From Phlyctochytrium arcticum (lineage: Eukaryota > Chytridiomycota > Chytridiomycetes > Chytridiales > Chytridiaceae), in assembly GCA_025602905.1 (NCBI GenBank), contig JAHLKI010000026.1, positions 124,001 through 188,000 on the forward strand: a DNA stretch of 64,000 nucleotides, in the 5' to 3' direction. The notes under the pieces were generated by a model. The model was not told the origin of the DNA. It did not search any database and saw only the letters and a list, made by a program, of their open reading frames with translations. Of this stretch, positions 8,649 through 59,400 are shown piece by piece. How positions within the stretch are numbered: position 1 is the stretch's first letter; the number at the start of each line of letters is the position of its first letter. Position numbers and translations under genes: made by a program.

Positions 8649-8896
8649 ATCCGTGGCAACCCGTGCGAATCTGCCAGATTCGGACACGACTGGACAGCGA
8701 CTGGATGCGGTGCGGTTCAAAACCACATTGTGATATATATAGAGAATACAAATTTATACTACAAAATGTCAATCCACCAAGGATAATAAGAAAAAAGATG
8801 TCCATCAAAAGTCCGGTGTCACATCTACGCAACAGCAACACTATTAGCAGCATGCGTAAACAATTTGTCCTAATAAAAACCCTCGTCAGATCCATG

Positions 8897-33700: not shown

Positions 33701-33926
33701 GAACCTGCATCGGGTACGGTCATTGCGCCACTCAATCAGAGTCAAGTTTTGCAAGGAATGCAGATTTTGAATCCCCAAAAGGTATGTATGAAGACATGCA
33801 CCGCGTTGTTGCCATCAGCCTAACCCATTTGATGACACCCAGGAGCAACTTCGATTGCGATTCAAAGTGCAATACGCGGTCAATGGCGCGGTAGTGAACG
33901 AGCAAGGGGAGTACCATGATGTGTAG
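30735..33926 (+). CDS. GGA: GGA-type clathrin adaptor (VHS-GAT-GAE)
   Basis: Twenty exons from ATG 30735 to TAG 33926 chain in phase to about 643 residues. Exon starts are 30735, 30867, 31021, 31149, 31318, 31506, 31623, 31735, 31871, 32076, 32223, 32391, 32635, 32732, 33037, 33153, 33335, 33481, 33683 and 33843. The N-terminal VHS domain is clear: EYPEPNVALMLEICDMINRK, HALTLLDYCVKNCGYPFHLI, then HRILELIQVWNATLC and MYRLLSYKGYRFPQM. The GAT domain follows (LEQANDLMKIMSGYDTERIP, QVEEEINRIEQRTILLNDIL). A hinge carries a clathrin-box-like LIDFDDF and many Pro/Gln. The GAE ear closes the protein (MIYDKNGLQIKYQVAW, VTPVPFTNLMFQVAVPKSM, QLRLRFKVQYAVNG). It sorts cargo from trans-Golgi to endosomes with ARF and clathrin. 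Length matches the family. Confidence 0.93.
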
Positions 33927-34348
33927 ATCAATGAAAGCTCTGCATGTGTTGGAAATATGCATCTGTTTGAAAGTATCATGTATGGAAGGACGACAATCTA
34001 GTTCGTTTTCTTATGATTTCCGTGAGGGGCCGTTGATACCCATGCGACTCGAGCATAATAGCATAAGGATAGTGGGTACTTTGATGGTGCGGTGGGTATA
34101 TAGAGCTGTGATAGGCCAGAGATCATGAGAGATGTGAAGGAAGTGGATGAGATCGTACCGGTAAGTTTTTCCGGGAGTTTCCTCGGCCGAAGCACAAGTT
34201 ACAACTTTGGTCACATGAGCCGCCGAGGTGGTCGCACACTTGTCGCACAATGTTTTTGGCAAATTTGGGATTTCGAAGTCTTCCGGGCCTGCCCGCTCGC
34301 CACATTCTCCAACAATCCCATCCCAATCCCGTTCACCAAAAGAGAATC
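33927..34348. other. Intergenic region between GGA and DBT
   Basis: 422 bp, with a TATATAG at about 34098 that could serve DBT. No supported gene was seen. Confidence 0.45.
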
Positions 34349-36513: not shown

Positions 36514-36949
36514 AGAAATCTCACACACCCGCATTTGATGGATGTTGTGTGTTGCGTTCACCTTTTGTTTTATCTTTTTGCGAATACGCGGACACCTTTT
36601 TTGTTTTGTAGATAGGGATCACTCACATTGTTTTACTTATTCCGCATTGAGGACACGAATTTCATTGCATTTGTTCTATATTTTACCGATTCCAATAGAT
36701 GTCGGTTTATCTTTTTTTTGTTGCAGTCTTCATATTTGCCACCCCACTCATTCTACCCATAACAGTAAATGATACTACATGGGCTTTTAATTCGTTCAGA
36801 ACAAAATATTTGCCCTCACGTAAGAGCCGAAGTTGGAGGCCATAGGCGTGGGAAAGGCGCAGTTTCATGCAAACTCGCGGAAATCGAGAGGTACCTGGCA
36901 GACACTACAAGCGAACTTGATTTCGAGAAATCAGAGGGGTTTCATTGAT
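36514..36949. other. 3' flank of DBT up to the inverted-repeat arm
   Basis: T-rich 3' region, with no gene seen. A short frame around 36833 is not supported. Confidence 0.5.
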
Positions 36950-39900
36950 GGACCAATGAGCGCTTCAAATAAAGCCAGTTCAAAGCTCTCCATCAGTTAC
37001 TCTATTTTGTCCTACTATTCTTTTCCATCGTCCTCGATTAAAAAAAAAGACAGCTATCAGTTATGCCTACATGTGTAAATGCAAAAATGATGAGCGTGAT
37101 AACCGGCAAATACACATCCCCGATTCTTCGAAAGTGTGATCATTTAGTTGGAAGACGGGATCGGACACCTATTCGACCAAGTTCCAATACACACAGCTTG
37201 CTCTAAGAAAATTATGGAAATACTGCGCTTTTTTTATCCCGTTCTAAAACCGATCAAACTTTTGGAGGAGCATGCATGTATTTGGTTATTACCCCGAGAA
37301 TTGTGGCAGCTACATTTTTGAAAAAATTGAGTCTAACTCTGCTCTCAGGCTGTCCATGTTTATTTCGATATTAGGGAATGCAGAATGCTAATAATATAGA
37401 GTGTGTCAAACTCAAATGTTGTGATGGGACCACAAACTTGGATCTGGAATGGGCCGCATCGTTTTATTATCCCCAGAAAATTACCAGGAAATTACTTACC
37501 CCCTGGTCGAATTGATCGTACCATCGTTTAACCTCCCTATTGAAAACTTGAAATAAATACGAAGCCAGGGACGTTACACAACTTTCAAGAATTTCCATGA
37601 CACGTTTCTATTTGTACAGGCTTCACCAAGAAGCAGCTTTTTATGCTTCCGCCTCACAATTAAATGCAAATCCCTGGACTGAAGCAATCATATAGGCTAT
37701 GAACTCGATTGCGCCTCTGGCTGTCATAACAGATTCAGTCTTTGACGCGTGAGCTCGTCAAAAATGCAACTAGAATAGCATCGTCTCTCACTTGCTGTAG
37801 CTAGCTAGCACTCAAGTATGGGAAGTTTATCCTGCTATTCTTTCCTCTTGCAAGTTCTCCAACGGTCTGTTTGATATTTGTTTGTAATTACATACCCCGT
37901 AAACAAAACCCTCATGGAATACATAATCAAAACTTCGGTTCAATCCTCACATCTCGCAAAGACCCACGGAAAAATACGGTATCATGGACCCTCACTTGCT
38001 CACTAAAGCAATCTGGGGTGAAATCTCCGGGACAGCCGTTGGAGAGCCTCATTCTCTCTTCCTTAGTTTTCTCGACCTCATCGCCTCCTGACCTATCTCG
38101 TGCTGTACTCGACATGGACCGTCGGCACGGTGAGATATCTCGCCGATGGGGGCATCGGTCCAGCGGGTCTGAGGGAAAAGCCGTTGCAGGAAATAGCCAA
38201 AATGCCGTTGCGGGTTCTGCCCCAACTTCACCCCGCAACAATCTCTCCACTGATGATGCGTCTGTTGCAAACACCTCTGCATCTGGCGATATACGAGATC
38301 GCTCCGCCATGCTCACTACCGAAAACCTACTCTCTATCCACAATAGCAAGATCGGGGACTCGCTTGTGCGGCTGAACAACCAACCAGTGCAGATCGACCA
38401 TGTTATTCCAAATTTCATCTCGAAACATACAAGGGATTGGTGCGATCGATACCTACAGCGAGTCGGCACAGTAGCTGATAAAGTTGGTAAGTAAACGACT
38501 ACTCAAAGCAAAAAGCACAGAGTAATTTATCGTTGCATATTCAGCCATGGAAATTGTTGCTCCCAGCAGTATCGCAAAGTCCGGACCAGCAACTAGCTTG
38601 GAATTTCACGGAAAAATGACTGGCTCTCTGGTCCCAGGTGTTGGCATGCAAGAAATTCTGAGCAGCTCCCCTGGGCCCTCTGGAGCTATCAGCAATATGC
38701 CTGGACCCACCATCACTACCTTTTTGGCCGAAGCTGAGCGCAGCACGCCTCACCTTGTTCCCAGCGCAGAGCTTACCTTTGCGGCAGTTGTCATGGCCGA
38801 TGTCAGCGGGTACTCGTTACTCACCTCACGACTGGCCGAGCTTGGTCCTTCTGGAGCAGAGATTCTTGGTCGCACAATGAAGGGTTATTTGGACAAGGTA
38901 CGGATCGAAACCTTTACTTGGCATTGCACATTATGGTATTCACGCGAGAATTCGCTCTTAGATCATTTCAACCATTCTGTCGCACGGAGGTGATATTGTA
39001 AAATTCGCCGGTATGTCAAAATCTGCGGTTGTGGTTCTTCGCAAGCGATGTTTTTTTGTACCTAACCATTTTCACTTTCCTTTATTCTCCGAAAATTTCC
39101 GATTGCCGCCGCTGCTCTCAATTCTCCGATTCTTCTCGATGCTTCGGCCATATAGGCGACGCTGTCATTTTTTATTGGCCCCTGGATCCTCGAAAGGATG
39201 ACATTGAAAATGAGCAAACGCGAGGCGAGATTGTACTTAAAGCATCCTACTGCTGTTTGGATCTCCTCCATCATTGCAATCCTTATCCCATCAACCTGAC
39301 TGATGTTGGAATGAAAGAACTGCGGATCCATCTGGGTATCGGCTCTGGATACGTTTACGATGTGCATGTGGGAGAACAATATAGATGGGAACACTTTATC
39401 GCAGGGGACGGTGTCAATCAAATTGCAGCGGTACTGGACTTGGCGAAACCAGGTATTTTTTTTGGAACGCTTTTTCCTGTCTTATGTTGAACGCTCACAC
39501 GTTGAGTTTGTAGGCCAACTGGCAATGTCACATCAGGCTCTCCGTAGTTTACAAGTTATCTTGGAATTACAGTCCGTCACAATCGGAAATTACGACAAGA
39601 AATGTATCATTCTGGAAGGCCTGGAAATGGCTCGGCGCAAGGTTTCTCCACCCTTAATCAAGTCCAACGATGATCTTGCTATGTGGGATATCGTTCCCCC
39701 TTCGGCCAATGTTGAGCTTTATAGACACTTTGTCAATGAAAGTGCGTTGTTCAAACTGCAGGCTGACGTGAGTCAGTCTCGCATCTTCCGTATGGAGTCC
39801 GGCTTGAACGATCTCCTTTCCTTGACGGAATTGCGCCAAATCACGACAGTTTTCATCCGTATTGGATCCCTCCGTCGATGGGACTCTCCGGCTTTACTCG

Positions 39901-42900
39901 GTGATGCCCAAGAGGCTATGACCATTGCTGATCGTGCCGTGAAACGCTACGAGGGGGATATCCGTCAGTTTCATGTTGATGAAAAAGGCGCGGTGATCTT
40001 GGCATTCTTCGGCTTACCCCCCAAGGCCCACGAGAACGACGCAACGTTCGGCATCAAGGCAGCCTTGGAGATTTGTACCCGATATCTCCCTTTATTTGAT
40101 GATTTCTCTGTGGGGATTACCACCGGTGTAGTGTCTATTGGAGGCGTGGGAAACTCCATTCGTACAGAGTACGCAGTAGTAAGTGTAGTACCCTTGTTCA
40201 TACCTTCTGCGTGAATATTGACCTTGTTTGTCGCAGATGGGAGACTCCATCAATATGGCCGCCCGCCTGATGTGCCACGCAGAAGCCAAGCGATCCCTGT
40301 TGTGCGATGAGCGATCGTACAATCTTGCGGACACTGACTTTGTATTTGACAAGTTGGGTGAGACTATGGTCAAGGGAAAGTCACATCCTATTGCAATCTT
40401 CCGTCCTCGAGCAACTTTACCTGAGCGTACGTTGAGCAAGCGAGGTGCCGGCCGACGCCTTGGAAAAGGCCAGCTCGTTGGTCGCCTGGTTGAAAAGGAC
40501 AAAATCATTAGTGAATTGAAACAATTCGAGGCGTCTGGCAATGCCGTTGTCAGCTCGGTTCTGGTCTTTGAAGCAGAGGGGGGGCAAGGATTGTCCACGC
40601 TTCTTGATTATGCCAGGGTAGAGGCGGCAAACTACAAACTCGCCATGTGGTAAGTTCTATATCGCGTCGCGACCGCATTAGCGTCCATTCTTGACTTCTA
40701 ACTCATTTCTGCTTGTTCATAGTACTGCCAGTGCGACGGAAACCGAAAAGTCGACGCCGTTCTACGCCTGGCGTGATCTTTTACGTGATTTGTTCAACTT
40801 TATCGCAAATGCTCACGTGAACGATAACTTGACTCTCACATTCAAAATCCGGGAACCTATCGACCACCCTTCGTCGGAGGAAGATACACAGGCAAAACCG
40901 GCCCCGGCCGCGGAAGCTTCAACTGATGTACAGCTTTCTACGCCTTCACAACGTCGCGATCTCTGGAGTGCGGTCAGGCAACGATCGCGTAAATCCTTTA
41001 TGGGTTCTCCGGAGGATTCCGGTCGGAAATCAATCTCCATGGCCTCTCCAGAGTCAGGCGAAATGCAGCGCTCTGCGTCATCTGCATCAACCACTATGAG
41101 ACCCAGTCCAATCGATACGACAACCGATTTGCCCCAAGGCCAAGGCAAACTGAAAGCTGTCGCAGAAGACAAGGAGATCAAAAGTCCAGAGGCAGCGTTG
41201 GCGACCCCCCTCAGTGCCGTAGATCCAATCGAGCTTAGACCGCTGAAAGACAGCATTAGAATTGCTTTGCAGCGAGTTGGCTACGACGAAACCCGCGTCG
41301 CGCATTTGTTTGGGCTTGTCTTCCCGGGAGAATACGAGCTTCCTCAAATGGATCATGGTGTCCTGATCTCTGGAAAAAGCCACATCAAAGAGCTCAGTGA
41401 TGTCGTGTGTCGCTTGATCAAGGCTGTTCTTGCTTCCAATCGAGTCATTCTGGGTTTTCCTGAAGGTCAATGGATGGATTCTTCATCCTGGGAGCTTTTG
41501 TATGACGTTCTGACCTATATTCCGAACGGCTTGCCAATTCTCATCTTCACGCGATTAATCAGTACCTACGAAAACGAGCAGAATACTGTGGTTTACAACA
41601 AGATGCGGCGACACAATTTGACCTCGTTCGATATTCATACGGTGGAAGGGCTCACGCTGGCTGACACGCACGACATGATCATTGTCGCTTGGCCTGGAGC
41701 GCTTATCAAGGGCGTCCATCCCGACATCGTTGAGCAGATCTTTAACCGAACTGAAGGAAAGCCGTTATATATCGAGTCTCTCGTCATGGCCTTTCAGGAG
41801 TCGGGCCAATACAGAATTGATCAAGACAGCATTCTAACCACTCAAGGAGATAACTTTAATTTCGATCACATCTTCGCCGGGCAAGGCCACCGCTCCATCA
41901 TTACCGCACAATACGACCGGCTGGACCGGACGTATCAACTATTCCTCAAGATTGCTTCGGCCCTAGGCGAGCGATTCCATGTTGAAGATGTAACTATATT
42001 TTTCAAAGACATGCCTGTCTTTACCGAGGCCTTCAGGGTCGATCAAAAACAAGTGCCCCGTAGCATTGACCAATACGACAAATATGGCTTTCTAACTCGA
42101 TGCGAATCCCCTGATATACGAGAGGGAGTAACTTATCAATTCAAGTCGGACGCTGTACGAAAGTGTATCTATTACATGATGGTTTTGACTCAACGACAGC
42201 AGCTTCATCTCAACATAGCTCTACATTACGAAAATCGAATCACAAAGGACAAAGACATGCGCCCAGCGCTTCTTATTTCTCTGTTCGAGCATTATATGCA
42301 GACAGACGACCGCCAAGTGATGAAGCGTATCAAATATATGGAAGAAGTCGCGGGCTTTTACTGGGAAAAGCGCCTGGTCACCGAGAGTATCAAGCATTAC
42401 CGCTGGCTTATTTCGACGGTTCAAGAGAACGAAATCAAAAGAGATCAAACGTTCTACACTGCGGACACGCGCTCGGACTGGCACCGCCATTTGGCAGAGG
42501 CTTACATGTGGAAGGACGATGTTGTTAACGCAGAAATCAATGCTCTACAAAGTCTCAAATGCCTGGGATGCCCCATGCCCACAGGTGCTACTCGCTTAGA
42601 GTTTGAAATTCGCAAATCACGCCGCAACGAAAAGGCGTGGCGTAAAGAATGGGTTCCGTGGGAGAAAAAAAGGAAGGATGCGGAAGAGATGGATCCTGTT
42701 CACCGATCAAATCTCGAGGCGGCGCGAGACATCTATCAAAAGTCAGCCAAGAGCTTGCGTGAAACCAGTCAGATTGAGCTTGCTGGGTCGTTCTCCGAGA
42801 GAGCCGATATTGCTGATCAGCCCAGACTGCCGCTGAGCAACGATTTCCAATCAGAGATGAGGGCGTACCTCTCATCGGTCCCTGAACAATTGCATGCCAA

Positions 42901-44203
42901 CCTTTTCTCGGCATCTCCTCGCCAGTATGATTCATCAGACTCCGATCTCGTTGATTTGATCGCCCGTGACCCAAGGATGGCCAGGCAGCACAAGGTGCGC
43001 TTGACCTTACTCATTTTGGCGGAGATCAACCTTCGTCTGGACCGTCGCCGCGAGCTAATGTGGTGCATCACCACGGGACTCAACTTATGCTACAACTTTC
43101 CGTTAAAGATCATTTTCGGCCGATTTCTGGCATTATGGGCTCTCTACCTTTCAAGATACGAGACAAAGAAGAAATTTAAAGAGTCACCCGAGTACGCTCG
43201 AGCGGCCGCTTCTAAAGAGCGCAGTGGTGACATTTTCAGCTCCATTCACCTTCATGAAACAATCGCGTCCTTTTATTTTGACAATTCCAAAGTACTTGGC
43301 AACGCAGAACACGCGCTGGATCACTATGAGAAGGCATTGAGTGCTGCTAAACTTGCTGGTGACAAAGTATCAATCAGTCGGATTTGGCGTTTGAAGAGTC
43401 TCCTACTGTTTTGGACAGTCAAACGTATCGATTCGCAAAAGGAGGCTCAAGCATATCTAACCTGGGCCTTTGACGAGGAAAATGACGAAGGAAAATTCTA
43501 TGCGTCGGCCATTTTGTCGGCGAACCTTTTGGAAGGAGACCGTCCGAATGAGGAGATCGAAGAATGTTCGTCGAAAATGTCTCAAGCGGTTAATCGCGCT
43601 GTCGTGGGAAAAGGTGACCACATCGCTAAGATACTTTATGACGCCTTGAATATGAAAACCAACTTCAAGTTGGGTCGTACCGTGGATCCCGCTTTCCTGG
43701 CCGAAGCCGGCAACGCGGCTATTTTAGAAAGAACCAGTAACGCCCATCAACCGATGGCTAATCTTGCCTACTTTGTCTTTTACGATGTAAATCGTCTGAT
43801 CTGGCGTCTCGGGTGGCACGACCAACAATCGCTGGGCGATAACCTTGCCATTCTTTCATTCATGTCGCGTCGACTCAAAAAGATCATGAAGTGGCAATAC
43901 CCCGCCGAACCTGTCTACTACGCGATCGCTTCTCTGAAGGCTGAAATTCGTGGTCAAGTGAAGAAAGCGCATGAGTCCTTTTGTAAGTCCTACAGACACA
44001 CCGCTAGTTTGTCGTACTTCGATGGGAAGCTCAACTTTCACCACTTCGAATTTTTGGACAAGGTGGCATCTACCAAGCAACTGCGAAACTACAACGAATA
44101 TGTCCTTTCAAGCAAGGCTCTGGCGGACACAGTTATGAAACAGATGGGGATGGCGGCTGACTCCCCCGATCAGTATATGGAAGGGGCATGGTGATACCGT
44201 CTG
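36950..44203 (+). repeat. Left arm of a ~7.2-kb inverted repeat
   Basis: The arm matches 48680 to about 55920 in reverse complement. From 37774 to 44203 every compared base and every open frame is identical, at fixed symmetry p <-> 92883-p, so there are no indels over 6.43 kb. The first difference is at 37773 (g versus t in the partner). Further out (36950-37772) the arms remain alignable but show many substitutions and small indels. Homology stops inward 9 bp after the cyclase stop codon. Confidence 0.93.
38114..44194 (+). CDS. Soluble adenylyl cyclase (ADCY10-like), copy 1
   Basis: There are seven exons (38114-38486, 38545-38897, 38962-39010, 39156-39452, 39514-40178, 40237-40649, 40723-44194), giving 1873 residues. 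Class III cyclase C1 holds the two metal aspartates, Asp210 (VVMADVSGYSLLTSRL) and Asp260 (KFAGDAVIFYW), and adenine-contacting Lys256. C2 has Asp513 (FHVDEKGAVILAFFG) and the transition-state Asn585/Arg589 (MGDSINMAARLM), but FIRIG replaces its metal Asp. The Lys/Asp pair predicts ATP rather than GTP as substrate. A STAND-type ATPase region follows, its P-loop degenerate (FEAEGGQGLSTLL, no Lys), then a >1000-residue helical TPR-like tail. The order C1-C2-ATPase-TPR is that of sAC, which makes cAMP in cilia and cytosol. No membrane helix was seen. The start at MDRRHGEISRRWGHRS is the first in-frame ATG. Confidence 0.9.
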
Positions 44204-44751
44204 CTTTTGTTTTTTTGTGTGTATATATTTAAAGAAAATCGAGTTCCTCTGAATTCACTCTCAAAAATGTCATGACTGAAACCCTAAGTCTAATACGGGC
44301 TTGCCCGCAACTGAGATGACATTTGCACATTGGTACATTGACAACATTACAGTTGAGGGTCGTTCTGGTGAGCACAATGTACATGCTTGAAGTCCGCAAA
44401 TTCCCCGGTGCTTCGCGGTGCCAGTACTATTTTTGCTTGCTTTTGGACCCGCAAATAAAGCGTAATTTCCGGTCCGCCATATCTATAAAAGGCCATACCC
44501 ACTTCGTTTCCCTCTCCCCTCTCACCCATGTTTTCTGCCCCATCATATGTACATGCCTCTGCCAAATGCGACCCACGACTCGGACTGCGTGGATGTCATC
44601 AGACACTCGCCGGCTAGAAACAAATGCATAACCTTCCTGACCTGCAACCTGGACTCTAGAGCTTCATTTGAATGGAAGCTGTGGAAACAGCCATGCGCAC
44701 TTGTGATCTACATGTGGGCTCAAGATAATCAAAAGTAGCGCTGCGCTGCAT

Positions 44752-45080
44752 TCATAAACATTGCGAATTTGCGATGCAGCAAGATGCTGGAGATGATGCC
44801 AATTTTGACGCTAAGGTAGGCCCGGTATTAGCCTGACAAGCATTGGGAATGCTTATTCATTGCTTGTCCCAAGATCCAAGACTGGAAGCGCGGTCTGCGC
44901 GAGTGAGGAAGGCTCCGCTGAAATCATAAACATTGTGATGACAGCAAAATGTTGGAGATGATGCCGATTTTGACGATAAGGTAGGCCCGGTATCAGCCTG
45001 GCAAGCATTGGAAATGCTTATTCATTGATTGTCCCAAGATTCAAGACTGGATGCGCGGCCTGCGCGAGTGAGGAAGGCTG
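44752..45080. repeat. Two direct tandem copies of a ~160-172-bp unit
   Basis: Copies start with tcataaacattg at 44752 and 44924 and share gctggagatgatgcc/gttggagatgatgcc, taaggtaggcccggtat, an aagcatt...aatgctt inverted motif, and gcgcgagtgaggaaggct. The copies differ by scattered substitutions. Confidence 0.85.
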
Positions 45081-46204
45081 ATGAGACGCAAAAAGTATCG
45101 GAACGCGGCTGATCGTTGGCGTCGATGAAATGAGGACAAATCACCTGCTGGCCATGATTTTCGAGGGTACCCCTCTTCGATCAATCATCGTGGGAGATTG
45201 TTGTAGCCATGAAAGAGCAAGTGGTCCGTGATGAAGCGATCATGAGTGACATTTGGTGAGTGACGGTTGTTGATTGACATTTGAGGATTGACATTTGATG
45301 GCTGACGTTTCCTGGTGGCTACATCGGCGGATGAACGGTGAAAGTGGAAAGGATGGAGGCGGGGCGGTACGTCAAACGACGTGGTGGTTGCTCTCTGCGT
45401 ACTCGCTGGATCTGGGACGCACTACCAGAAGAACAAGGTGTAAATTAGAAGAAGGCGCAAACCCCGCCAATTTTGCTGGAGCTTACCAGGATGGACGACA
45501 AAGAGATGTTCCTACTCGCAGTCCCTAGTCGCAGGTCGAAAAGCCGACAATATGACGGGTGTTTGATTTGACGCGCAAAGGCAGTTCCGAGGTCTGAGTT
45601 GGAGGTAGGCGGTTCGCAAATCAAGTGCTCCGTTCCCGAGCGTGGGTTTCCGCAAGCCTGTGGGCTTCATGGGAGTAGTAGGACTTGGTTCTGATGGGTC
45701 AGTATTCTTGCGGTCCAGTGGAAGGAGCTACCAGTTTAGCGCACGCGAGAGATCAACGTTTGGTTTCCCCCCTTGGCAAGTTCATGTCATGTGACCTCAA
45801 CTCCAGATGGATTTCCGCTACTGACGGCGATTGACGGCGATGGATGGCGATGCACGACGATACCAGCACACGAAAGAATGGATCATGATTCAGCACAAAA
45901 GCAAGCTGATCAGCTTTGAAGTACAAGATGAGGGCCAAATCCAAAGTGTTGAGCTTGTCACTCATTCAGATTCAGTCGGTGGGGAGCACGCTGGCGTTAT
46001 GCAGCATGAATTCACCCGCAAATTGACCAAGCACCACGCAAAAAATGCCGATGGCTGTGGAGTAGAGTGCCAGATTTTGTCTCAGTTGTGTTTGTGTCAA
46101 GAAGTTTCATTCAGATGCGCGATGATTCCAGCCCCAAATCGCGATTAATCCTACCGTACTGCAACAAGTGCTCATCGGCGCTGCGAAAATATTGATTTCA
46201 AAAG

Positions 46205-46275
46205 GTCCCTGGTGGCCGAGTGGTTAAGCAAGGGCATGCCGACGGGTACTGCGCGGGTTCGATTCCTGCACCTTG
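46205..46275 (+). repeat. tRNA-derived unit with A and B boxes (SINE head or tRNA pseudogene)
   Basis: TGGCCGAGTGGTTAAG (46213-46228) is a Ser/Leu-type A box, and GGTTCGATTCC (46256-46266) is a consensus B box at a suitable distance. The acceptor stem does not close and no anticodon arm can be folded. The next ~150 bp contain several short hairpins (for example gtccttcgggac near 46387) before a T-rich stretch. The layout is that of a tRNA-derived SINE, but only one copy is seen here. Confidence 0.5.
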
Positions 46276-47189
46276 CGAAAAACCCCTCGGTATATTCTTC
46301 AGCTTGCATATGTAAGCTGCAGTAAGAATAGCGCAGCTGCCCCGAGCAGCTGGTCAGGCGTTCCCTAAGGGGTATCTGGGGCTACTGTCCTTCGGGACGG
46401 GAGCTTCAGATATTCCTTTTGCCATGCGTCCTTTTTCTTATTCTCAAGTCCTGGTAGTCTGCAGACTGCCTTTGGCCCGATTCATAGATCGTAAATGGAG
46501 GGAGAGCTGGACGAAAGGTGTTCACGATAAAGTGTATCAACTCGCTGGCTATCGACGCATAACTAGTTGAACGCGTCTATCCGGGCAATAAACCAAACAC
46601 TAGTATACCTGCCTGAACAGAAAGAGTCTAGGGGATAAGGTTGTCGGTATGAAGCAAAATTGAATGACTAGGGTGAACGATTAATCGTTTGTTCGTATAG
46701 CTCGAGTGGAAAAAAAGAAAACTAGAACAAAAAACCAGTATCAGTGACTGGAGAAAAGCTGTGCTTGTTTTTGAACTTACCTTGTCACATTTTCACAGCA
46801 TGGACTTACCTTCACAGCATGAACTTACCTTGTCACGGGCCCTTGAAGATAGTTACGAGCACCGCGCTGCTACTTATGCCTTGTTGGCGCGAAACCGTAG
46901 CGGTTGCGGGAGCCTTTCCTGGACGCGTCACGGCCAATCTAACGGTCGACGCGTCGGGACGACAGCATCGCGACTTTGCACACCAAACACTCGGAAAAGA
47001 ACCGGCGACCACAAACAGAAAGCAGGAATATTGGTGCTGGCACTGGTACTGGTACTGGCCAGCGCACGCCGGCTATGGGCCATCGGGGTATATGGGGTTT
47101 CGGGTATGGTGGTTGGTGCGTTGAGCAAGTTGTTTTTTCCTCCTCTGAACTCTGAAAATAGGCTCAAGTAAACCTACCACCACAAACCC

Positions 47190-47753
47190 ATGGACCAACC
47201 AACGAAACTACCTCCTAGTACTGGTCAAAGAATGGTCTCTCGAAACCTTTTCCCCGCACCTCCTACCTTCCCAAACACATCCTTGTTTAAGACCGCAAAA
47301 CGGCGAAACCAACTTCCGCCAGAGCCCCCGTTTGGACCCAGGAATATGTCTCGGGCGAACATGCTCTTCTCCAGGAATGTGATGTCTGAGCCTCCCTCGG
47401 CGTTTGATTGCAACAAGATCGACTTTCGTTCTTCAGCCCGACACCATCCCGTCCTTTGGATGCCTCCAGCGAACCTTTTCCCCCTCCACATTTGGCCCCT
47501 TAACCGGAAAACCTACGAAATGCCAGGATCACCTTTCCCATATCACCACGGAATACTCGCCATGAATATATATCACCAAACCCGTTTGGATGCCGCTTCG
47601 TCCTCGTACCAGGAGCCCCTCGCATATTGCGGCACAAGCTTCCGCCCAACGCAAATAATCCTCCTTCATTCACATACCGCACTGTATTTTCAGCCTGCCA
47701 ATTTTCCTTCGCAATCTCGGCTGGTCATCTCCGCAACTGAAAGAGTCGTTTGA
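47190..47753 (+). CDS. Weak hypothetical ORF in the inverted-repeat spacer
   Basis: 187 codons from a genuine ATG, with a Pro-rich composition (LFPAPPTFPNTSLFKTAKRR). It has no recognisable domain, no splice support and sits in repeat-rich DNA. It may be non-coding. Confidence 0.2.
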   Translation: MDQPTKLPPSTGQRMVSRNLFPAPPTFPNTSLFKTAKRRNQLPPEPPFGPRNMSRANMLFSRNVMSEPPSAFDCNKIDFRSSARHHPVLWMPPANLFPLHIWPLNRKTYEMPGSPFPYHHGILAMNIYHQTRLDAASSSYQEPLAYCGTSFRPTQIILLHSHTALYFQPANFPSQSRLVISATERVV

Positions 47754-48143
47754 ATGCGGAACATGTACCTTTTGGTTTTTTGAATTGAAAGCATGTGGAA
47801 AGCCAGACTGGGCATCTACAGTACCAACATTTCGAGACGGCCTGTAGGACCTTGATTTGCAAAATTAGGTGTAGTTTCATCAAAGATGTTTCAAAAACAC
47901 CAGCTAAAGTCATTTTCAGTGAGCGCAAAGGTAGAGTGACATTGGCTCGTGGTTGTAAGATTCGGAGTATTGTTGCGAAATAGGGTCTTTTCATCATTTG
48001 GCTTACCCGTAATGAAAGCCTTTCCCATTTCCTTTATGTATAAACACCGAAATCTCTCTCCCACTTCTGTAATCTTAACTTGCATACATCAGTAGCAAAC
48101 TTTTTAGTTCAAAAAACGGCATCAGCACCATAGTCTCTCCACT

Positions 48144-48533
48144 ATGACAGACCAAAGACAATCGTCGTCCGCGGATACTACTTTTACCCCAGCTGCTCTG
48201 GAGTTGGCAGCCGAACTCCTCAAAAGCAACAAACCCGAAATAGATGAGACTGAAGAATCTCATTCATCATCTCGTTACTTTCCCACACTGACTATTAACA
48301 CAGAAGATGTATTGACTGTCAACGGAACGAAACAAAGTATTCAAGGACATGTACCGGCAAAATTATATTTGGCAAATACGGGAATTCTGATCGGCGTATA
48401 TGTATTCATGCAATGCGCGAAATCAGTCGCCAAACCGTCCCACAGTCGTGCGACGAAGATGGTTAGTGGATACCAATGCCGTGTACAAATATCAGTACCT
48501 GGCCAGCGTCTCGAAGTGGGGTTCTGGATATAG
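48144..48533 (+). CDS. Weak hypothetical ORF next to the right arm
   Basis: 129 codons from an ATG in acceptable context. The first half reads plausibly (TFTPAALELAAELLKSNKPE followed by IDETEESH), while the second half looks less protein-like and may include intron sequence. No homologue is recognised. It is convergent with cyclase copy 2 on the other strand. Confidence 0.28.
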   Translation: MTDQRQSSSADTTFTPAALELAAELLKSNKPEIDETEESHSSSRYFPTLTINTEDVLTVNGTKQSIQGHVPAKLYLANTGILIGVYVFMQCAKSVAKPSHSRATKMVSGYQCRVQISVPGQRLEVGFWI

Positions 48534-48679
48534 ATAACTGATGCAGTTGCACTTTGTAGCATAGACGGGATCATGCTTGCATTTGCATGTCTGGTTATAA
48601 GTAAAATCGGAGAATACATTTTTGTGTATGTCATCATATAATCGGAGAATACATTCACATGTAGATACAAAAACAAAAA

Positions 48680-51600
48680 CAGACGGTATCACCATGCCCC
48701 TTCCATATACTGATCGGGGGAGTCAGCCGCCATCCCCATCTGTTTCATAACTGTGTCCGCCAGAGCCTTGCTTGAAAGGACATATTCGTTGTAGTTTCGC
48801 AGTTGCTTGGTAGATGCCACCTTGTCCAAAAATTCGAAGTGGTGAAAGTTGAGCTTCCCATCGAAGTACGACAAACTAGCGGTGTGTCTGTAGGACTTAC
48901 AAAAGGACTCATGCGCTTTCTTCACTTGACCACGAATTTCAGCCTTCAGAGAAGCGATCGCGTAGTAGACAGGTTCGGCGGGGTATTGCCACTTCATGAT
49001 CTTTTTGAGTCGACGCGACATGAATGAAAGAATGGCAAGGTTATCGCCCAGCGATTGTTGGTCGTGCCACCCGAGACGCCAGATCAGACGATTTACATCG
49101 TAAAAGACAAAGTAGGCAAGATTAGCCATCGGTTGATGGGCGTTACTGGTTCTTTCTAAAATAGCCGCGTTGCCGGCTTCGGCCAGGAAAGCGGGATCCA
49201 CGGTACGACCCAACTTGAAGTTGGTTTTCATATTCAAGGCGTCATAAAGTATCTTAGCGATGTGGTCACCTTTTCCCACGACAGCGCGATTAACCGCTTG
49301 AGACATTTTCGACGAACATTCTTCGATCTCCTCATTCGGACGGTCTCCTTCCAAAAGGTTCGCCGACAAAATGGCCGACGCATAGAATTTTCCTTCGTCA
49401 TTTTCCTCGTCAAAGGCCCAGGTTAGATATGCTTGAGCCTCCTTTTGCGAATCGATACGTTTGACTGTCCAAAACAGTAGGAGACTCTTCAAACGCCAAA
49501 TCCGACTGATTGATACTTTGTCACCAGCAAGTTTAGCAGCACTCAATGCCTTCTCATAGTGATCCAGCGCGTGTTCTGCGTTGCCAAGTACTTTGGAATT
49601 GTCAAAATAAAAGGACGCGATTGTTTCATGAAGGTGAATGGAGCTGAAAATGTCACCACTGCGCTCTTTAGAAGCGGCCGCTCGAGCGTACTCGGGTGAC
49701 TCTTTAAATTTCTTCTTTGTCTCGTATCTTGAAAGGTAGAGAGCCCATAATGCCAGAAATCGGCCGAAAATGATCTTTAACGGAAAGTTGTAGCATAAGT
49801 TGAGTCCCGTGGTGATGCACCACATTAGCTCGCGGCGACGGTCCAGACGAAGGTTGATCTCCGCCAAAATGAGTAAGGTCAAGCGCACCTTGTGCTGCCT
49901 GGCCATCCTTGGGTCACGGGCGATCAAATCAACGAGATCGGAGTCTGATGAATCATACTGGCGAGGAGATGCCGAGAAAAGGTTGGCATGCAATTGTTCA
50001 GGGACCGATGAGAGGTACGCCCTCATCTCTGATTGGAAATCGTTGCTCAGCGGCAGTCTGGGCTGATCAGCAATATCGGCTCTCTCGGAGAACGACCCAG
50101 CAAGCTCAATCTGACTGGTTTCACGCAAGCTCTTGGCTGACTTTTGATAGATGTCTCGCGCCGCCTCGAGATTTGATCGGTGAACAGGATCCATCTCTTC
50201 CGCATCCTTCCTTTTTTTCTCCCACGGAACCCATTCTTTACGCCACGCCTTTTCGTTGCGGCGTGATTTGCGAATTTCAAACTCTAAGCGAGTAGCACCT
50301 GTGGGCATGGGGCATCCCAGGCATTTGAGACTTTGTAGAGCATTGATTTCTGCGTTAACAACATCGTCCTTCCACATGTAAGCCTCTGCCAAATGGCGGT
50401 GCCAGTCCGAGCGCGTGTCCGCAGTGTAGAACGTTTGATCTCTTTTGATTTCGTTCTCTTGAACCGTCGAAATAAGCCAGCGGTAATGCTTGATACTCTC
50501 GGTGACCAGGCGCTTTTCCCAGTAAAAGCCCGCGACTTCTTCCATATATTTGATACGCTTCATCACTTGGCGGTCGTCTGTCTGCATATAATGCTCGAAC
50601 AGAGAAATAAGAAGCGCTGGGCGCATGTCTTTGTCCTTTGTGATTCGATTTTCGTAATGTAGAGCTATGTTGAGATGAAGCTGCTGTCGTTGAGTCAAAA
50701 CCATCATGTAATAGATACACTTTCGTACAGCGTCCGACTTGAATTGATAAGTTACTCCCTCTCGTATATCAGGGGATTCGCATCGAGTTAGAAAGCCATA
50801 TTTGTCGTATTGGTCAATGCTACGGGGCACTTGTTTTTGATCGACCCTGAAGGCCTCGGTAAAGACAGGCATGTCTTTGAAAAATATAGTTACATCTTCA
50901 ACATGGAATCGCTCGCCTAGGGCCGAAGCAATCTTGAGGAATAGTTGATACGTCCGGTCCAGCCGGTCGTATTGTGCGGTAATGATGGAGCGGTGGCCTT
51001 GCCCGGCGAAGATGTGATCGAAATTAAAGTTATCTCCTTGAGTGGTTAGAATGCTGTCTTGATCAATTCTGTATTGGCCCGACTCCTGAAAGGCCATGAC
51101 GAGAGACTCGATATATAACGGCTTTCCTTCAGTTCGGTTAAAGATCTGCTCAACGATGTCGGGATGGACGCCCTTGATAAGCGCTCCAGGCCAAGCGACA
51201 ATGATCATGTCGTGCGTGTCAGCCAGCGTGAGCCCTTCCACCGTATGAATATCGAACGAGGTCAAATTGTGTCGCCGCATCTTGTTGTAAACCACAGTAT
51301 TCTGCTCGTTTTCGTAGGTACTGATTAATCGCGTGAAGATGAGAATTGGCAAGCCGTTCGGAATATAGGTCAGAACGTCATACAAAAGCTCCCAGGATGA
51401 AGAATCCATCCATTGACCTTCAGGAAAACCCAGAATGACTCGATTGGAAGCAAGAACAGCCTTGATCAAGCGACACACGACATCACTGAGCTCTTTGATG
51501 TGGCTTTTTCCAGAGATCAGGACACCATGATCCATTTGAGGAAGCTCGTATTCTCCCGGGAAGACAAGCCCAAACAAATGCGCGACGCGGGTTTCGTCGT

Positions 51601-54600
51601 AGCCAACTCGCTGCAAAGCAATTCTAATGCTGTCTTTCAGCGGTCTAAGCTCGATTGGATCTACGGCACTGAGGGGGGTCGCCAACGCTGCCTCTGGACT
51701 TTTGATCTCCTTGTCTTCTGCGACAGCTTTCAGTTTGCCTTGGCCTTGGGGCAAATCGGTTGTCGTATCGATTGGACTGGGTCTCATAGTGGTTGATGCA
51801 GATGACGCAGAGCGCTGCATTTCGCCTGACTCTGGAGAGGCCATGGAGATTGATTTCCGACCGGAATCCTCCGGAGAACCCATAAAGGATTTACGCGATC
51901 GTTGCCTGACCGCACTCCAGAGATCGCGACGTTGTGAAGGCGTAGAAAGCTGTACATCAGTTGAAGCTTCCGCGGCCGGGGCCGGTTTTGCCTGTGTATC
52001 TTCCTCCGACGAAGGGTGGTCGATAGGTTCCCGGATTTTGAATGTGAGAGTCAAGTTATCGTTCACGTGAGCATTTGCGATAAAGTTGAACAAATCACGT
52101 AAAAGATCACGCCAGGCGTAGAACGGCGTCGACTTTTCGGTTTCCGTCGCACTGGCAGTACTATGAACAAGCAGAAATGAGTTAGAAGTCAAGAATGGAC
52201 GCTAATGCGGTCGCGACGCGATATAGAACTTACCACATGGCGAGTTTGTAGTTTGCCGCCTCTACCCTGGCATAATCAAGAAGCGTGGACAATCCTTGCC
52301 CCCCCTCTGCTTCAAAGACCAGAACCGAGCTGACAACGGCATTGCCAGACGCCTCGAATTGTTTCAATTCACTAATGATTTTGTCCTTTTCAACCAGGCG
52401 ACCAACGAGCTGGCCTTTTCCAAGGCGTCGGCCGGCACCTCGCTTGCTCAACGTACGCTCAGGTAAAGTTGCTCGAGGACGGAAGATTGCAATAGGATGT
52501 GACTTTCCCTTGACCATAGTCTCACCCAACTTGTCAAATACAAAGTCAGTGTCCGCAAGATTGTACGATCGCTCATCGCACAACAGGGATCGCTTGGCTT
52601 CTGCGTGGCACATCAGGCGGGCGGCCATATTGATGGAGTCTCCCATCTGCGACAAACAAGGTCAATATTCACGCAGAAGGTATGAACAAGGGTACTACAC
52701 TTACTACTGCGTACTCTGTACGAATGGAGTTTCCCACGCCTCCAATAGACACTACACCGGTGGTAATCCCCACAGAGAAATCATCAAATAAAGGGAGATA
52801 TCGGGTACAAATCTCCAAGGCTGCCTTGATGCCGAACGTTGCGTCGTTCTCGTGGGCCTTGGGGGGTAAGCCGAAGAATGCCAAGATCACCGCGCCTTTT
52901 TCATCAACATGAAACTGACGGATATCCCCCTCGTAGCGTTTCACGGCACGATCAGCAATGGTCATAGCCTCTTGGGCATCACCGAGTAAAGCCGGAGAGT
53001 CCCATCGACGGAGGGATCCAATACGGATGAAAACTGTCGTGATTTGGCGCAATTCCGTCAAGGAAAGGAGATCGTTCAAGCCGGACTCCATACGGAAGAT
53101 GCGAGACTGACTCACGTCAGCCTGCAGTTTGAACAACGCACTTTCATTGACAAAGTGTCTATAAAGCTCAACATTGGCCGAAGGGGGAACGATATCCCAC
53201 ATAGCAAGATCATCGTTGGACTTGATTAAGGGTGGAGAAACCTTGCGCCGAGCCATTTCCAGGCCTTCCAGAATGATACATTTCTTGTCGTAATTTCCGA
53301 TTGTGACGGACTGTAATTCCAAGATAACTTGTAAACTACGGAGAGCCTGATGTGACATTGCCAGTTGGCCTACAAACTCAACGTGTGAGCGTTCAACATA
53401 AGACAGGAAAAAGCGTTCCAAAAAAAATACCTGGTTTCGCCAAGTCCAGTACCGCTGCAATTTGATTGACACCGTCCCCTGCGATAAAGTGTTCCCATCT
53501 ATATTGTTCTCCCACATGCACATCGTAAACGTATCCAGAGCCGATACCCAGATGGATCCGCAGTTCTTTCATTCCAACATCAGTCAGGTTGATGGGATAA
53601 GGATTGCAATGATGGAGGAGATCCAAACAGCAGTAGGATGCTTTAAGTACAATCTCGCCTCGCGTTTGCTCATTTTCAATGTCATCCTTTCGAGGATCCA
53701 GGGGCCAATAAAAAATGACAGCGTCGCCTATATGGCCGAAGCATCGAGAAGAATCGGAGAATTGAGAGCAGCGGCGGCAATCGGAAATTTTCGGAGAATA
53801 AAGGAAAGTGAAAATGGTTAGGTACAAAAAAACATCGCTTGCGAAGAACCACAACCGCAGATTTTGACATACCGGCGAATTTTACAATATCACCTCCGTG
53901 CGACAGAATGGTTGAAATGATCTAAGAGCGAATTCTCGCGTGAATACCATAATGTGCAATGCCAAGTAAAGGTTTCGATCCGTACCTTGTCCAAATAACC
54001 CTTCATTGTGCGACCAAGAATCTCTGCTCCAGAAGGACCAAGCTCGGCCAGTCGTGAGGTGAGTAACGAGTACCCGCTGACATCGGCCATGACAACTGCC
54101 GCAAAGGTAAGCTCTGCGCTGGGAACAAGGTGAGGCGTGCTGCGCTCAGCTTCGGCCAAAAAGGTAGTGATGGTGGGTCCAGGCATATTGCTGATAGCTC
54201 CAGAGGGCCCAGGGGAGCTGCTCAGAATTTCTTGCATGCCAACACCTGGGACCAGAGAGCCAGTCATTTTTCCGTGAAATTCCAAGCTAGTTGCTGGTCC
54301 GGACTTTGCGATACTGCTGGGAGCAACAATTTCCATGGCTGAATATGCAACGATAAATTACTCTGTGCTTTTTGCTTTGAGTAGTCGTTTACTTACCAAC
54401 TTTATCAGCTACTGTGCCGACTCGCTGTAGGTATCGATCGCACCAATCCCTTGTATGTTTCGAGATGAAATTTGGAATAACATGGTCGATCTGCACTGGT
54501 TGGTTGTTCAGCCGCACAAGCGAGTCCCCGATCTTGCTATTGTGGATAGAGAGTAGGTTTTCGGTAGTGAGCATGGCGGAGCGATCTCGTATATCGCCAG

Positions 54601-55920
54601 ATGCAGAGGTGTTTGCAACAGACGCATCATCAGTGGAGAGATTGTTGCGGGGTGAAGTTGGGGCAGAACCCGCAACGGCATTTTGGCTATTTCCTGCAAC
54701 GGCTTTTCCCTCAGACCCGCTGGACCGATGCCCCCATCGGCGAGATATCTCACCGTGCCGACGGTCCATGTCGAGTACAGCACGAGATAGGTCAGGAGGC
54801 GATGAGGTCGAGAAAACTAAGGAAGAGAGAATGAGGCTCTCCAACGGCTGTCCCGGAGATTTCACCCCAGATTGCTTTAGTGAGCAAGTGAGGGTCCATG
54901 ATACCGTATTTTTCCGTGGGTCTTTGCGAGATGTGAGGATTGAACCGAAGTTTTGATTATGTATTCCATGAGGGTTTTGTTTACGGGGTATGTAATTACA
55001 AACAAATATCAAACAGACCGTTGGAGAACTTGCAAGAGGAAAGAATAGCAGGATAAACTTCCCATACTTGAGTGCTAGCTAGCTACAGCAAGTGAGAGAC
55101 GATGCTATTATAGTTGCATTTTTGACGAGCTCACGCGTCAAAGACTGAATCTGTTATGACAGCCAGAGGCGCAATCGAGTTCATAGCCTATATGATTGCT
55201 TCAGTCCAGGGATTTGCATTTAATTGTGAGGCGGAAGCATAAAAAGTTGCGTCTTGGACAAAGTATCGCGTCATGGAAATTCTTGAAAGTTGTGTAACGT
55301 CCCTGGCTTCGTATTTATTTCAAGTTTTCAATAGGGAGGTAAAACGATGGTACGATCAATTCGATTAGGGGGTAGATAATTCCCTGGTAATTGGGAAAAT
55401 AGAACGATGTTACCCCTCAAGTTTGTCGTTCATGACAACATTTGGGTTTGACACACTCAGTAGCATTCTGCATTCCCTAAGAGCTGGATAAAAACCTCAG
55501 AAGGTATGGACAGCCTGAGAGCAGAGTTGGACTCAATTTCTTTTAACGGTCTACTTGCCACATTCTCAGGGTAATAATCCAATACATCACATGTATGCTC
55601 CTCCAAAAGTTTGATTGGTTTTGGAAAGGGACAACATAAAAAAAGGACAGTATTTCTCAGAACAAGATGTGCATATTGGAACTTAGTCATATAGGTTTCC
55701 AATCCCGTCTTCCAACTGAATGATCACACGTTAAAAAAACTGGGGATGTGTATTTGCCGGTTATCACGCTCATCATTTTCGCATTTACAAATGCATGCAT
55801 AACTGATGTTTTTTTTTGCGAAGATGGAAAAAAAGTGGGACAAAATAAGTGGAGCAACAGATGGAGAGTTTTGGAATGGCTTTAGGCGCCAGCCTACAGC
55901 TAAAGCAATAAATGCAAGCG
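48680..55920 (-). repeat. Right arm of the ~7.2-kb inverted repeat
   Basis: Reverse complement of the left arm. Positions 48680-55109 match 44203-37774 with no difference seen. From 55110 to about 55920 the match continues with clear substitutions and small indels, for example around 55245-55275 where the left arm has about 20 extra bases. The two arms are separated by 4476 bp. Confidence 0.93.
48689..54769 (-). CDS. Soluble adenylyl cyclase (ADCY10-like), copy 2
   Basis: This is the mirror image of copy 1. Exons in transcription order are 54769-54397, 54338-53986, 53921-53873, 53727-53431, 53369-52705, 52646-52234 and 52160-48689. They encode the same 1873 residues with identical introns. 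All features described for copy 1 apply, including the intact catalytic residues and the degenerate P-loop. Both copies therefore appear able to make the same enzyme. Differences lie only upstream of about 55110, so the proximal promoter and 5' UTR are shared and any expression difference would come from more distal promoter sequence or from the 3' UTR, which diverges 9 bp after the stop. Confidence 0.9.
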
Positions 55921-56145
55921 ACATACGAAGCGTAAAGGCAGATCTCCGTTCAAAAAACGAATCTATTTCATGTTATTCACAGAAGATCGTTTTTTTACTC
56001 ATTGTCAAATTATGGAAAAGTTGCCAAGTGGCTTTTTCCCAATCTGTCTCCAGGTTTATTTTTAGCACTCTTGAAAATACAGCATTTCATCCTTACAACG
56101 GATAGCAGTTTTGCTGTATCTTCTGCTTGCTGACCGGGGAAAGTC
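55921..56145. other. Intergenic region before the FERM gene
   Basis: AT-rich and presumably the FERM-gene promoter. No gene was seen. Confidence 0.4.
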
Positions 56146-56173
56146 GCTGCACCACGCTGCACCACGCTGCACC
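56146..56173. repeat. 10-bp direct repeats abutting the FERM-gene start codon
   Basis: gctgcaccac occurs in two full copies plus a partial third and runs directly into the ATG at 56174. Confidence 0.85.
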
Positions 56174-59100
56174 ATGAAGATCTTCAAGGGCAAAAAAGAA
56201 AAGTTGGAAAAGACACTGTCAAATCCTCTATTGCAGGAACAGGCCCTGGCCCGGCGAAAACCTGCAAAGAAGATTGTGGAGAGAGGACCAGATGCAGCAC
56301 GCGAAGCGCAATGGCAGCCGCCTTTACAACGACACATTAAACCTGACGATGGTTCAGAATTTGTTACTATCCGAGTGCGCATTCTTAATGGGGACGCCGA
56401 GCATGATTTTAATGCAAAGTTTCCGTACGGGCCCTTGTTATGTTCCAAAGTGACCAATATCATTGCCGATAAAGAGTCGCTGGACGCAGAGGCTAGACAG
56501 CTCTTTAGTCTTTGGGTTGTGGGCAAGGATATCGGTAACGGATATTGCCTAATTTTTTTTCGATTTTCTCATAACAATACTTCGCTTTAGAACTTCAGGT
56601 TCGGCCGGACTTGGACATATTTACCATCATGAATAAGTGGAATACCCTGTAAGTAGCTGGCTCTTCGATGTATTTCCCAAGCTCGCCCTAAAGTTCAGAG
56701 CTTATTAAAAGTGTTCTGGACTGCACGCATTATCCTGAAGCAATTGATCCAACTCACCCCATCAATCGCCATTGGTTTGTTTATCGGCGTGAAGCAACCG
56801 TTTTAAAGGATGTCGAACGGTGCTGCACGGATCCTGCTGCTGTGCGACTATTGTATGGAGAGGTACATTACTGCTCTGTTTGGTGTTTTCCTCAAAACGC
56901 ATCTAATGGGCGCTCGCCACCACAAGGCAAAGAGGAATGTCATGACTGGACGTTATGTGTGTGTGCTTGCGGATGGTGTAGCATTGGGGGGGATGATGCT
57001 CGCAATGGCTGCTGGTCCATTTGACCGTCTTCGGCATGCGGATGGCTATCTCACGTACGTATCGGGCATGCGACATGGTTATACGGCCTAGTTTTCATGC
57101 TTTCAAATGTAGGAAGAATGAGTATTGGAAAACATTAATTCCAATGCGCCTACATGATGACCTGAGGCCGCAAGAATGGGAAGAGTGTCTGAAAACGGAG
57201 CACATGAAGCACGATGGTAGATCACCAGATGTCTTGCGAATTATGTAAGTAGAACGCAGGATATACTGTTCCGCATCTGACAAGCGCACAGGTACTTGGA
57301 ATATGTTCGCGAATTTGCGTGTTACGGATGCTCATTTTTTCCCTGCTGTCGGGATCGCCCACCGGCCGGTTTTTTCGAGTTCCGATTGCAACGATGGTTA
57401 ATAGGGGTCAGTACAGACGGCGTAGTGGCCATTGATCAGGACAAAAATGTAGGCGCGTATTGAAACGCTCAAAGCGAAATGCTAACCTACGGGCACAGGG
57501 TTACGCATTTGCCGAACAGTGGGCAAACTTGACAGTCAAAAGATCTGTTGACAGGATTATATTGCGATGGAGGGATGGCGACAAAGGAAAGCAAAAGAAG
57601 CTGAAATTGTTCACGCCTCAGGCAGAAATGATTTGCAACCTTGCACTTCGTGCCAAATATCTCGCGCTGAAAGCGCAACACGAAGCGGAGCAAGGACCTC
57701 AACAGAGCATCGGACATCCGCCAATGCCAGCGTTGGGTATCTCACATTCTGCGACAACTGCCTCAAAACCTATTTCCCATGCATTGCAGGAGGGGACAGT
57801 CCCAGCACAATATGACGCTGGGTGGTATCCAAGCCAGCATGAAGTGCCACCCTCAATGAATGATGCATACCAGAACAAACGACAATCTCACCACGCCGCG
57901 TTAATGAACCCAAGTCAAGGTCAAGGCTATTCGGGTGATCACTATCAGGATACGCGACAGTCCAGCTATGGTGGATTTGTGAATCCAGCGCAGAACCAAC
58001 CAGGCGACCCTTATCAGGACAAGCGACAGTCCAATTACGGTGGCTTTATAAATCCGGCACAAAATTTTGCGGGAGAATCCTACTCGGACAAACGACAGTC
58101 TTCTCATGTAGGACTGGCGAGCTCATCCCAAAACAATATGGCCCGACAGGCAGGGCCATCGCCAGCTGAAGCTGCGGCCTTCAGATCATATCGCCAATCT
58201 GCGGTATCTCAAGTTGGAGGGGCGGAGTATGAGCAGGACAAGATGTTTACGCCTGCAAGTCAGTCAGGCCAACAGAACTACCCTCAAGAATATGGCCAGA
58301 GCACGTTCCCCCAAGAATATGCGCAAGTTGAATCGCGATCTCGCCGGACAAGTTTACAACTGTCAGAACCTTTTGCAGATCGAGGCAAAGCAGTAGGCCC
58401 CGGACAGGCAGTAAATGAAGAGTTGTATGGTCGATTTAAGCAAGGCAATGTCCAGGCATCGAATTCGGCCTATAATCGATATTCTCAGCAACAAGCCCCT
58501 CCGCAGGCCGATGTAGCCTCGCAGCCACAAGGGTATAGCCAGCGAAGCGCGTCTCAGCAATGGGAGAACGACTCCTCCCTTGACGAAGTCGGCCAAATGT
58601 TATCGCATGCCTTGAGTGATCTCGAGCCGTCTCAAGCATCCGTGTCGACGCCTTCAGCCCCACCTATGGATATTTTTAACGAGTCCCGGAAGACAATCAA
58701 CGGTACCTCAAACTTACCAGGATTATCCTCAGGGCGTCCGCTGAGTATGACAAACGCTGGTGCTGCAGGTGCTGCGCGTCCTCCTCTTTCATCTTTCATT
58801 CGTCGGCCAAACAGCCCTGGTCCCAATACCGCAGCTGCTAGTACAGGAATATCATCACCCGCCCAAGCCCTTTACGGAGGGGGTGCAAACTCATTGGGGG
58901 CATTTTCTAGTACAGCAGCAAAGCGGTTATCCGTCGGATCTCAACTGAGTGGGCTAGCGGGACCACCCTTGGCAAGTGTTCCAATACCATCGCTGGGCCT
59001 TACGCCCGCACATCGTCGTCCATCTGGCTTACCTGCAACTGACGCATCGAAAACGATTTCTGAGATGGGCGCGTATAATACCCCTCATTACGCCGTAACG

Positions 59101-59370: not shown

Positions 59371-59400
59371 CGCTTCATCCCGGTCGGGACAAAAATAAAA

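What the first reader, a model, noticed from the sequence alone, without database searches (positions are those of the whole stretch)
36950..55920. Inverted gene pair of soluble adenylyl cyclases homogenised over exactly one transcription unit
Two complete 1873-residue cyclase genes face each other tail-to-tail. Their 6.43-kb cores (37774-44203 / 48680-55109) show no difference and no indel, including introns, while the outer ~0.8 kb of the same arms has clearly diverged with substitutions and indels. Homology on the inner side stops 9 bp after the stop codon. An old inverted duplication followed by recent gene conversion limited to the gene body explains this better than one recent duplication. 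It resembles palindrome-arm maintenance of functional duplicates. Identity starting about 340 bp before the ATG and stopping right after the stop suggests that conversion tracks, or selection, follow the transcribed unit.
Basis: seen in the sequence. Interest (0 to 1): 0.85.

Follow-up and report, generated by a model that had tools for sequence, protein, structure and literature searches.

The report
Inverted cyclase gene pair, recently homogenised
In what appears to be a chytrid fungus genome, two back-to-front copies of a large cyclase gene are letter-for-letter identical although their flanks show the duplication is old, which points to recent gene copying between the two copies, a known process seen here in a new place.

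Summary
Two intact 1873-residue soluble-adenylyl-cyclase-like genes lie tail to tail. Their arms align over 36970-44214 / 48669-55884. There is no difference in 37774-44203, six introns included, but the outer ~0.65 kb has ~12-17% substitutions and 11 indel events.

A control supports an old duplication followed by recent gene conversion. A decayed copy on contig C28 is similarly far from the diverged outer segment (67-69% identity) and from the homogenised upstream segment (75%). Constraint therefore does not explain why the arms differ by 17% in one and 0% in the other.

The claim that conversion follows exactly one transcription unit is not supported. On the inner side the right arm is cut 20 bp after the stop codon by a 4.4-kb fragment of a dispersed repeat, so no homology is left to convert. 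On the outer side the tract starts at ~37637, about 480 bp before the ATG. The tract is simply the arm DNA still alike enough to recombine.

Flattening by the assembler is unlikely but untested, as no reads were available. The process is known (sex-chromosome palindromes, Cryptococcus pheromone genes); this is a new example, apparently in Phlyctochytrium arcticum.

The parts
36970..37636 (+). left arm, outer diverged flank (not homogenised)
   Evidence: 103 of 616 compared bases differ from the right arm
37637..44203 (+). left arm, homogenised tract (one G/T difference at 37773, otherwise identical)
38114..44194 (+). left cyclase gene; exons 38114-38486, 38545-38897, 38962-39010, 39156-39452, 39514-40178, 40237-40649, 40723-44194; 1873 aa
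   Evidence: spliced frame open, GT-AG introns; 49.6% identical to P0004 (Spizellomyces punctatus SPPG_09415) over residues 1-1799
44215..44288 (.). left-arm downstream sequence with no match to the right arm or to the repeat copies
44289..48670 (.). fragment of a dispersed repeat, cut off inside the repeat at both ends and abutting the right arm
   Evidence: 56 matches listed in the own genome including the window itself (lower bound; 40 of 42 candidates scored); matches over 600 bases, the window's own left out, are 86-94% identical, on C1, C2, C3, C10 and C16; other copies continue past both ends
48669..55246 (-). right arm, homogenised tract and last 11 bp of inner homology
48689..54769 (-). 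right cyclase gene; exons 54397-54769, 53986-54338, 53873-53921, 53431-53727, 52705-53369, 52234-52646, 48689-52160; identical to the left
55247..55884 (-). right arm, outer diverged flank

Best explanation
A segment of about 7.2 kb, from ~1.1 kb upstream of the cyclase ATG to just past its stop codon, was duplicated in inverted orientation long ago. A fragment of a dispersed repeat came to lie between the arms, at the duplication or later. The arms diverged, and recently one copied over the other by gene conversion between the inverted arms. The copied tract was about 6.57 kb (37637-44203). Its inner limit is the repeat fragment, where homology ends. Its outer limit is where the flanks had become too different (~12-17% substitutions plus indels) for strand exchange to go on. 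Shown: the identity pattern, the repeat fragment, the intact gene pair and the old age of the flanks. Inferred: that the agent was gene conversion, in one step or several, its direction, and that rejection of mismatched strands set the outer edge.
For: Zero differences in 6430 bp against ~17% (MAFFT) in the adjoining flank. At the flank rate the six introns alone (459 bp) would be identical with probability ~5e-34; the upper 95% bound on core divergence is 4.7e-4, about 360 times below the flank. The C28 outgroup copy is 390/562 (left) and 378/562 (right) identical to the outer flank, 208/279 to the homogenised upstream segment and 34/40 to the short piece between. Introns 1 and 6 are 45/57 and 51/66 identical to C28, gap columns left out. 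The core is thus somewhat better conserved than the flank, but far from invariant. Both arms carry changes of their own in the flank: of 96 differing sites 34 are left-derived, 46 right-derived, 16 unresolved. So neither flank is a recent copy of the other. The arms' alignment stops at 36970 / 55884 and the middle is asymmetrical, unlike a hairpin artefact.
Against: No reads and no second strain were available, so homogenisation by the assembler is not excluded directly. Only one pair is known, so rate and direction cannot be measured. The tract runs to within 11 bp of the end of homology, leaving little homology for the second end; copying that ended there by non-homologous joining is also possible. 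The homogenised upstream segment is a little closer to C28 (75%) than the flank is (67-69%), so mild constraint may add to the contrast.
Confidence: 0.82

Rival explanations
1. The assembler or polisher flattened two cores that really differ, by mixing reads from both copies.
For: The identical tract lies where reads of the two copies are hardest to tell apart; no reads could be examined. One of three control pairs, an inverted one on C28, also shows a long identical run (1235 bp) followed by a sharply different end.
Against: The same assembly keeps differences between other near-identical repeats on C28: a 4.48-kb direct pair (99.78% by BLAST) has 12 differing columns, five of them scattered and seven at one edge, longest identical run 1394 bp; a 0.88-kb pair has 14. 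The window and 200 kb of C28 hold no N, which fits a long-read assembly (inference). The controls, 3 of the 11 pairs listed, are shorter than the arms.
Confidence: 0.1
2. A second copying event replaced one old arm: strand invasion at ~37637, copying through the gene, then non-homologous joining to the repeat fragment, rather than conversion with homology on both sides.
For: The inner end is a junction with a repeat fragment cut off at both sides, as in templated insertions at break-induced replication junctions (recalled).
Against: Needs the repeat to have arrived with the last, recent event. Among the listed matches over 400 bases, other than the window's own place, the closest are 94% identical, and a 139-base piece is 96%, so there is no sign of a recent arrival, though the true source copy may be unlisted.
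Confidence: 0.07
3. Simple recent inverted duplication with fast-evolving flanks.
For: Identity of the cores alone.
Against: The diverged outer flank and the identical upstream segment are similarly far from the outgroup (67-69% and 75%); both arms have private changes in the flank.
Confidence: 0.01

Closest known systems
Mammalian sex-chromosome palindromes with arm-to-arm gene conversion (PMC8981503: start of abstract and passages seen; Rozen et al. 2003 seen only as cited in PMC526376)
   Same: Inverted gene-bearing arms, near-perfect identity, a separate spacer; spacers are described there as structurally unstable
   Different: Arms of ~7 kb here against a median of 37 kb in the primate X set; nothing shows that this contig is sex-linked or non-recombining; homogenisation stops short of the outer arm ends
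Cryptococcus MAT pheromone genes (PMC526376: passages seen)
   Same: Fungal; repeated genes usually in inverted orientation, judged there to be kept by gene conversion within one allele
   Different: There ~500-bp repeats within a mating-type locus; here a whole 6-kb gene, and no mating-type link was looked for
Willow sex-chromosome palindromes (PMC7023750: passages seen)
   Same: Conversion confined to part of the arms
   Different: 200-kb plant sex-linked structure
ADCY10-type soluble adenylyl cyclases
   Same: Two cyclase domains match ADCY10 (best E 1.6e-27)
   Different: Thr of the human EYTVIG motif is Ala578 here and Ala in Spizellomyces P0004 too; substrate choice untested

Membership tests
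gene-converted inverted gene pair (palindrome type) | inverted arms with near-perfect identity | tested here: met
gene-converted inverted gene pair (palindrome type) | duplication older than the arm identity suggests | tested here: met
   diverged outer flanks with an outgroup control
gene-converted inverted gene pair (palindrome type) | copies more alike within a genome than between genomes | not testable with these tools
   the own-genome searches state that no relatives are held
gene-converted inverted gene pair (palindrome type) | structure confirmed by spanning reads | not testable with these tools
   no reads available
conversion limited to one transcription unit | both tract ends set by the transcript and not by loss of homology | tested here: not met
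   inner end is a repeat junction; outer end at ~37637, 477 bp before the ATG; transcript ends themselves are unknown
ADCY10-like soluble adenylyl cyclase | two cyclase homology domains related to ADCY10 | tested here: met
   two stretches, 205-368 and 460-628, match 4cm2; Pfam PF00211 itself matches only residues 556-629
ADCY10-like soluble adenylyl cyclase | metal-binding and transition-state residues | tested here: met
   Asp210, Asp260, Lys515, Asn585 and Arg589 align with identical human residues (their roles are recalled)
ADCY10-like soluble adenylyl cyclase | ATP rather than GTP as substrate, bicarbonate response | not testable with these tools
   Ala578 replaces the human Thr

The most novel reading that the evidence does not exclude
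Inverted pairing acts as a gene-preserving device in this fungus. The only intact copies of this cyclase type that were found are the paired, homogenised ones, while the copies found on C28 are all truncated or broken. Conversion between arms would then be what keeps the gene alive, outside any known sex-determining region. Against it: a 3' fragment near one C28 copy lies tail to tail with it, so that locus may be a pair that decayed all the same.
Probability: 0.1. Interest if true: 0.55.

Novelty: new member of a known kind. Interest (0 to 1): 0.33.

Why it matters
It is a clean case of recent homogenisation between inverted gene copies, with a sharp tract edge, a usable outgroup and decayed paralogs in the same genome. 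It would let one ask in a chytrid whether pairing protects genes and how divergence sets the limits of conversion tracts. The one literature search here that named Chytridiomycota with inverted duplication and gene conversion listed no paper.

Tried and rejected
Hairpin artefact of sequencing: rejected, because the outer flanks differ, the alignment stops at 36970 / 55884 and the middle is not symmetrical.

Core identity by constraint alone: rejected with the C28 control and the introns.

A clean transposon insertion in the middle: not supported, because other copies of the repeat continue past both ends of the fragment. Six of the 19 open frames of 60 residues or more that overlap it were scanned and matched no Pfam family, so its type is unknown.

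A mobile unit with fixed ends that carries the cyclase gene was considered. The C28 copy's upstream homology also fades near the outer end of the arms (window ~37001 against 36970), and a C28 3' fragment loses similarity soon after the stop codon. At ~69% identity such edges are soft, and I did not search for terminal repeats or target duplications, so this stays open.

A promoter and terminator scan of 44150-44400 uses bacterial consensus rules and says nothing here. An open-frame list for part of the C28 element gave none of 150 residues.

Papers: 8 of 10 searches used. For the organism's name plus genome three papers were listed, none a genome paper by its title; one was opened and holds the name only in a reference title.

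Changed on checking: the odds of the novel case fell from 0.12 to 0.10 because of the tail-to-tail fragment on C28.

Full report
Where it is. The window is C26:124001-188000 of a 31.5-Mb, 91-contig genome. It appears to be Phlyctochytrium arcticum: P0003, given that name by its source, lies on a contig of 374593 bases, the exact length of C28. C26 has the length, 415809, given for the contig of P0002, a protein 100% identical to the query and listed without source, as the window's own proteins are. The name is an inference from contig length plus a protein label.

The pair. Arms 36970-44214 and 48669-55884 are inverted and tail to tail. The gene model has seven exons and 1873 residues. The protein matches ADCY10 in two stretches, carries part of a Pfam cyclase domain (residues 556-629), and is 49.6% identical to P0004, a Spizellomyces protein, over residues 1-1799. 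P0002, the listed model, is the last 727 residues only.

The identity pattern. Differences lie at or before 37636, at 37773 and at 44204, and nowhere else. The part up to 37636 has 103 substitutions in 616 compared bases (MAFFT) and the arms have 11 indel events. BLAST, which places gaps differently, counts 77 mismatches and 83 gap columns over the whole arm. The rate in the flank therefore lies at about 12-17%. The identical run of 136 bp after 37636 puts the tract edge there and not at 37774.

The control. C28 holds related pieces: two truncated copies (33.9-36.1 kb and 129.7-133.8 kb, both ending at the same place of the gene, window 43174) and smaller fragments, including some at 127.5-129.0, 31.3-31.5 and 220.4-221.6 kb. 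Of 21 protein matches in the own genome, 12 are the window pair and 9 lie on C28 (all 19 candidates scored); no other intact copy was found. The C28 copy at 129.7-133.8 kb extends through the upstream region, so it serves as an outgroup. Its identity is 390/562 (left) and 378/562 (right) to the outer segment, 34/40 to the short piece between, 208/279 to the homogenised upstream segment, and 45/57 and 51/66 to introns 1 and 6. The arms differ from each other at 96 of 562 sites in the outer segment and at none of 279 in the homogenised one. In the first 170 aligned coding bases the C28 alignment is poor (94/170) and was not used. Synonymous divergence of the two truncated copies from the intact gene is 0.39 and 0.29, with dN/dS 0.36 and 0.41, which fits a time under constraint before decay. 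The 130-kb copy has one stop codon and shows no match between residues 203 and 654; the 34-kb copy begins at residue ~799 and its frame is split at 35239.

The middle. A search with 44200-48690 listed 56 matches in the own genome, the window included (a lower bound; 40 of 42 candidates scored). Matches over 600 bases other than the window's own, on C1, C2, C3, C10 and C16, are 86-94% identical, and the matches together span 44289-48670. Three other copies at the right end and two at the left continue past the fragment. The fragment is therefore cut off at both ends, and its right end meets the right arm within 2 bp of the end of homology. The left copy keeps about 94 bp after its stop codon before the repeat begins, the right copy 20 bp. 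Without the fragment the arms would be only ~74 bp apart.

The neighbourhood. A search with 32000-37000 found only its own place; one with 55800-60400 found its own place and an overlapping tandem copy.

How it works. The likely course is an old inverted duplication, divergence, then conversion between arms over the DNA still alike. The gene fills most of that DNA, so the tract looks gene-shaped. The outer edge may be held by rejection of mismatched heteroduplex (established knowledge, not tested). Nothing requires that the tract follows transcription.

Artefact check. Three of the 11 repeat pairs listed within C28:1-200000 were read column by column. A 4.48-kb direct pair has 12 differing columns, five scattered and seven at one edge. 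A 0.88-kb pair has 14. A 1.49-kb inverted pair has 75; of these the 30 shown all lie beyond an identical run of 1235 bp, so it too has a sharp edge. These pairs show that small differences are kept, but they are shorter than the arms, so flattening is made less likely and not excluded.

Known or new. Conversion between inverted gene copies is known in mammals (PMC8981503), in willow (PMC7023750) and, in a fungus, for Cryptococcus pheromone genes (PMC526376); passages of all three were seen. This is a new example, not a new process. That the paired copies are intact and the other copies found are broken is suggestive, but it is one family in one genome, the two larger C28 copies share one truncation and so count as one loss, and one C28 locus may itself have been a tail-to-tail pair.

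Noticed in passing
L028:6967 to L029:1447 (C28:136967-141447) and C28:170289-174769: A 4.5-kb repeated element, 99.8% identical between two places. A search with 3034 bases of it listed 94 matches in the own genome (40 of 83 candidates scored); its first ~60 bases match their own place on the other strand, so they look self-complementary. One frame holds a Prim-Pol domain (PF09250, E 2.9e-15); type not determined.
   Followed up: partly
C28:141428-142913 and 148335-149819: Inverted 1.5-kb pair with an identical run of 1235 bp and a sharply different end
   Followed up: no
window 36970-38113: G+C is 0.394 in both outer flanks and 0.447 in the homogenised upstream segment; it would fit GC-biased conversion but could as well be base composition near the gene
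   Followed up: no
window 59385-60055 and 60206-60875: Direct tandem duplication, 91% identical, at the 3' end of a 1226-residue open frame (60301-63981, - strand)
   Followed up: no
window 44740-45079: Two ~170-bp direct copies, 87% identical, inside the repeat fragment
   Followed up: no
C28:32513-36098 and 126011-131844: The two truncated cyclase copies share about 1.3 kb of further sequence beyond their break, though spaced differently
   Followed up: no
C28:31334-31527: A 3' fragment of the cyclase in orientation opposite to the nearby truncated copy, so that locus too may once have been a tail-to-tail pair
   Followed up: no
window 13930-15702 (+) and 7386-8726 (-): Subtilase-family peptidase frame (PF00082) and a lysine methyltransferase frame (PF10294)
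   Followed up: no
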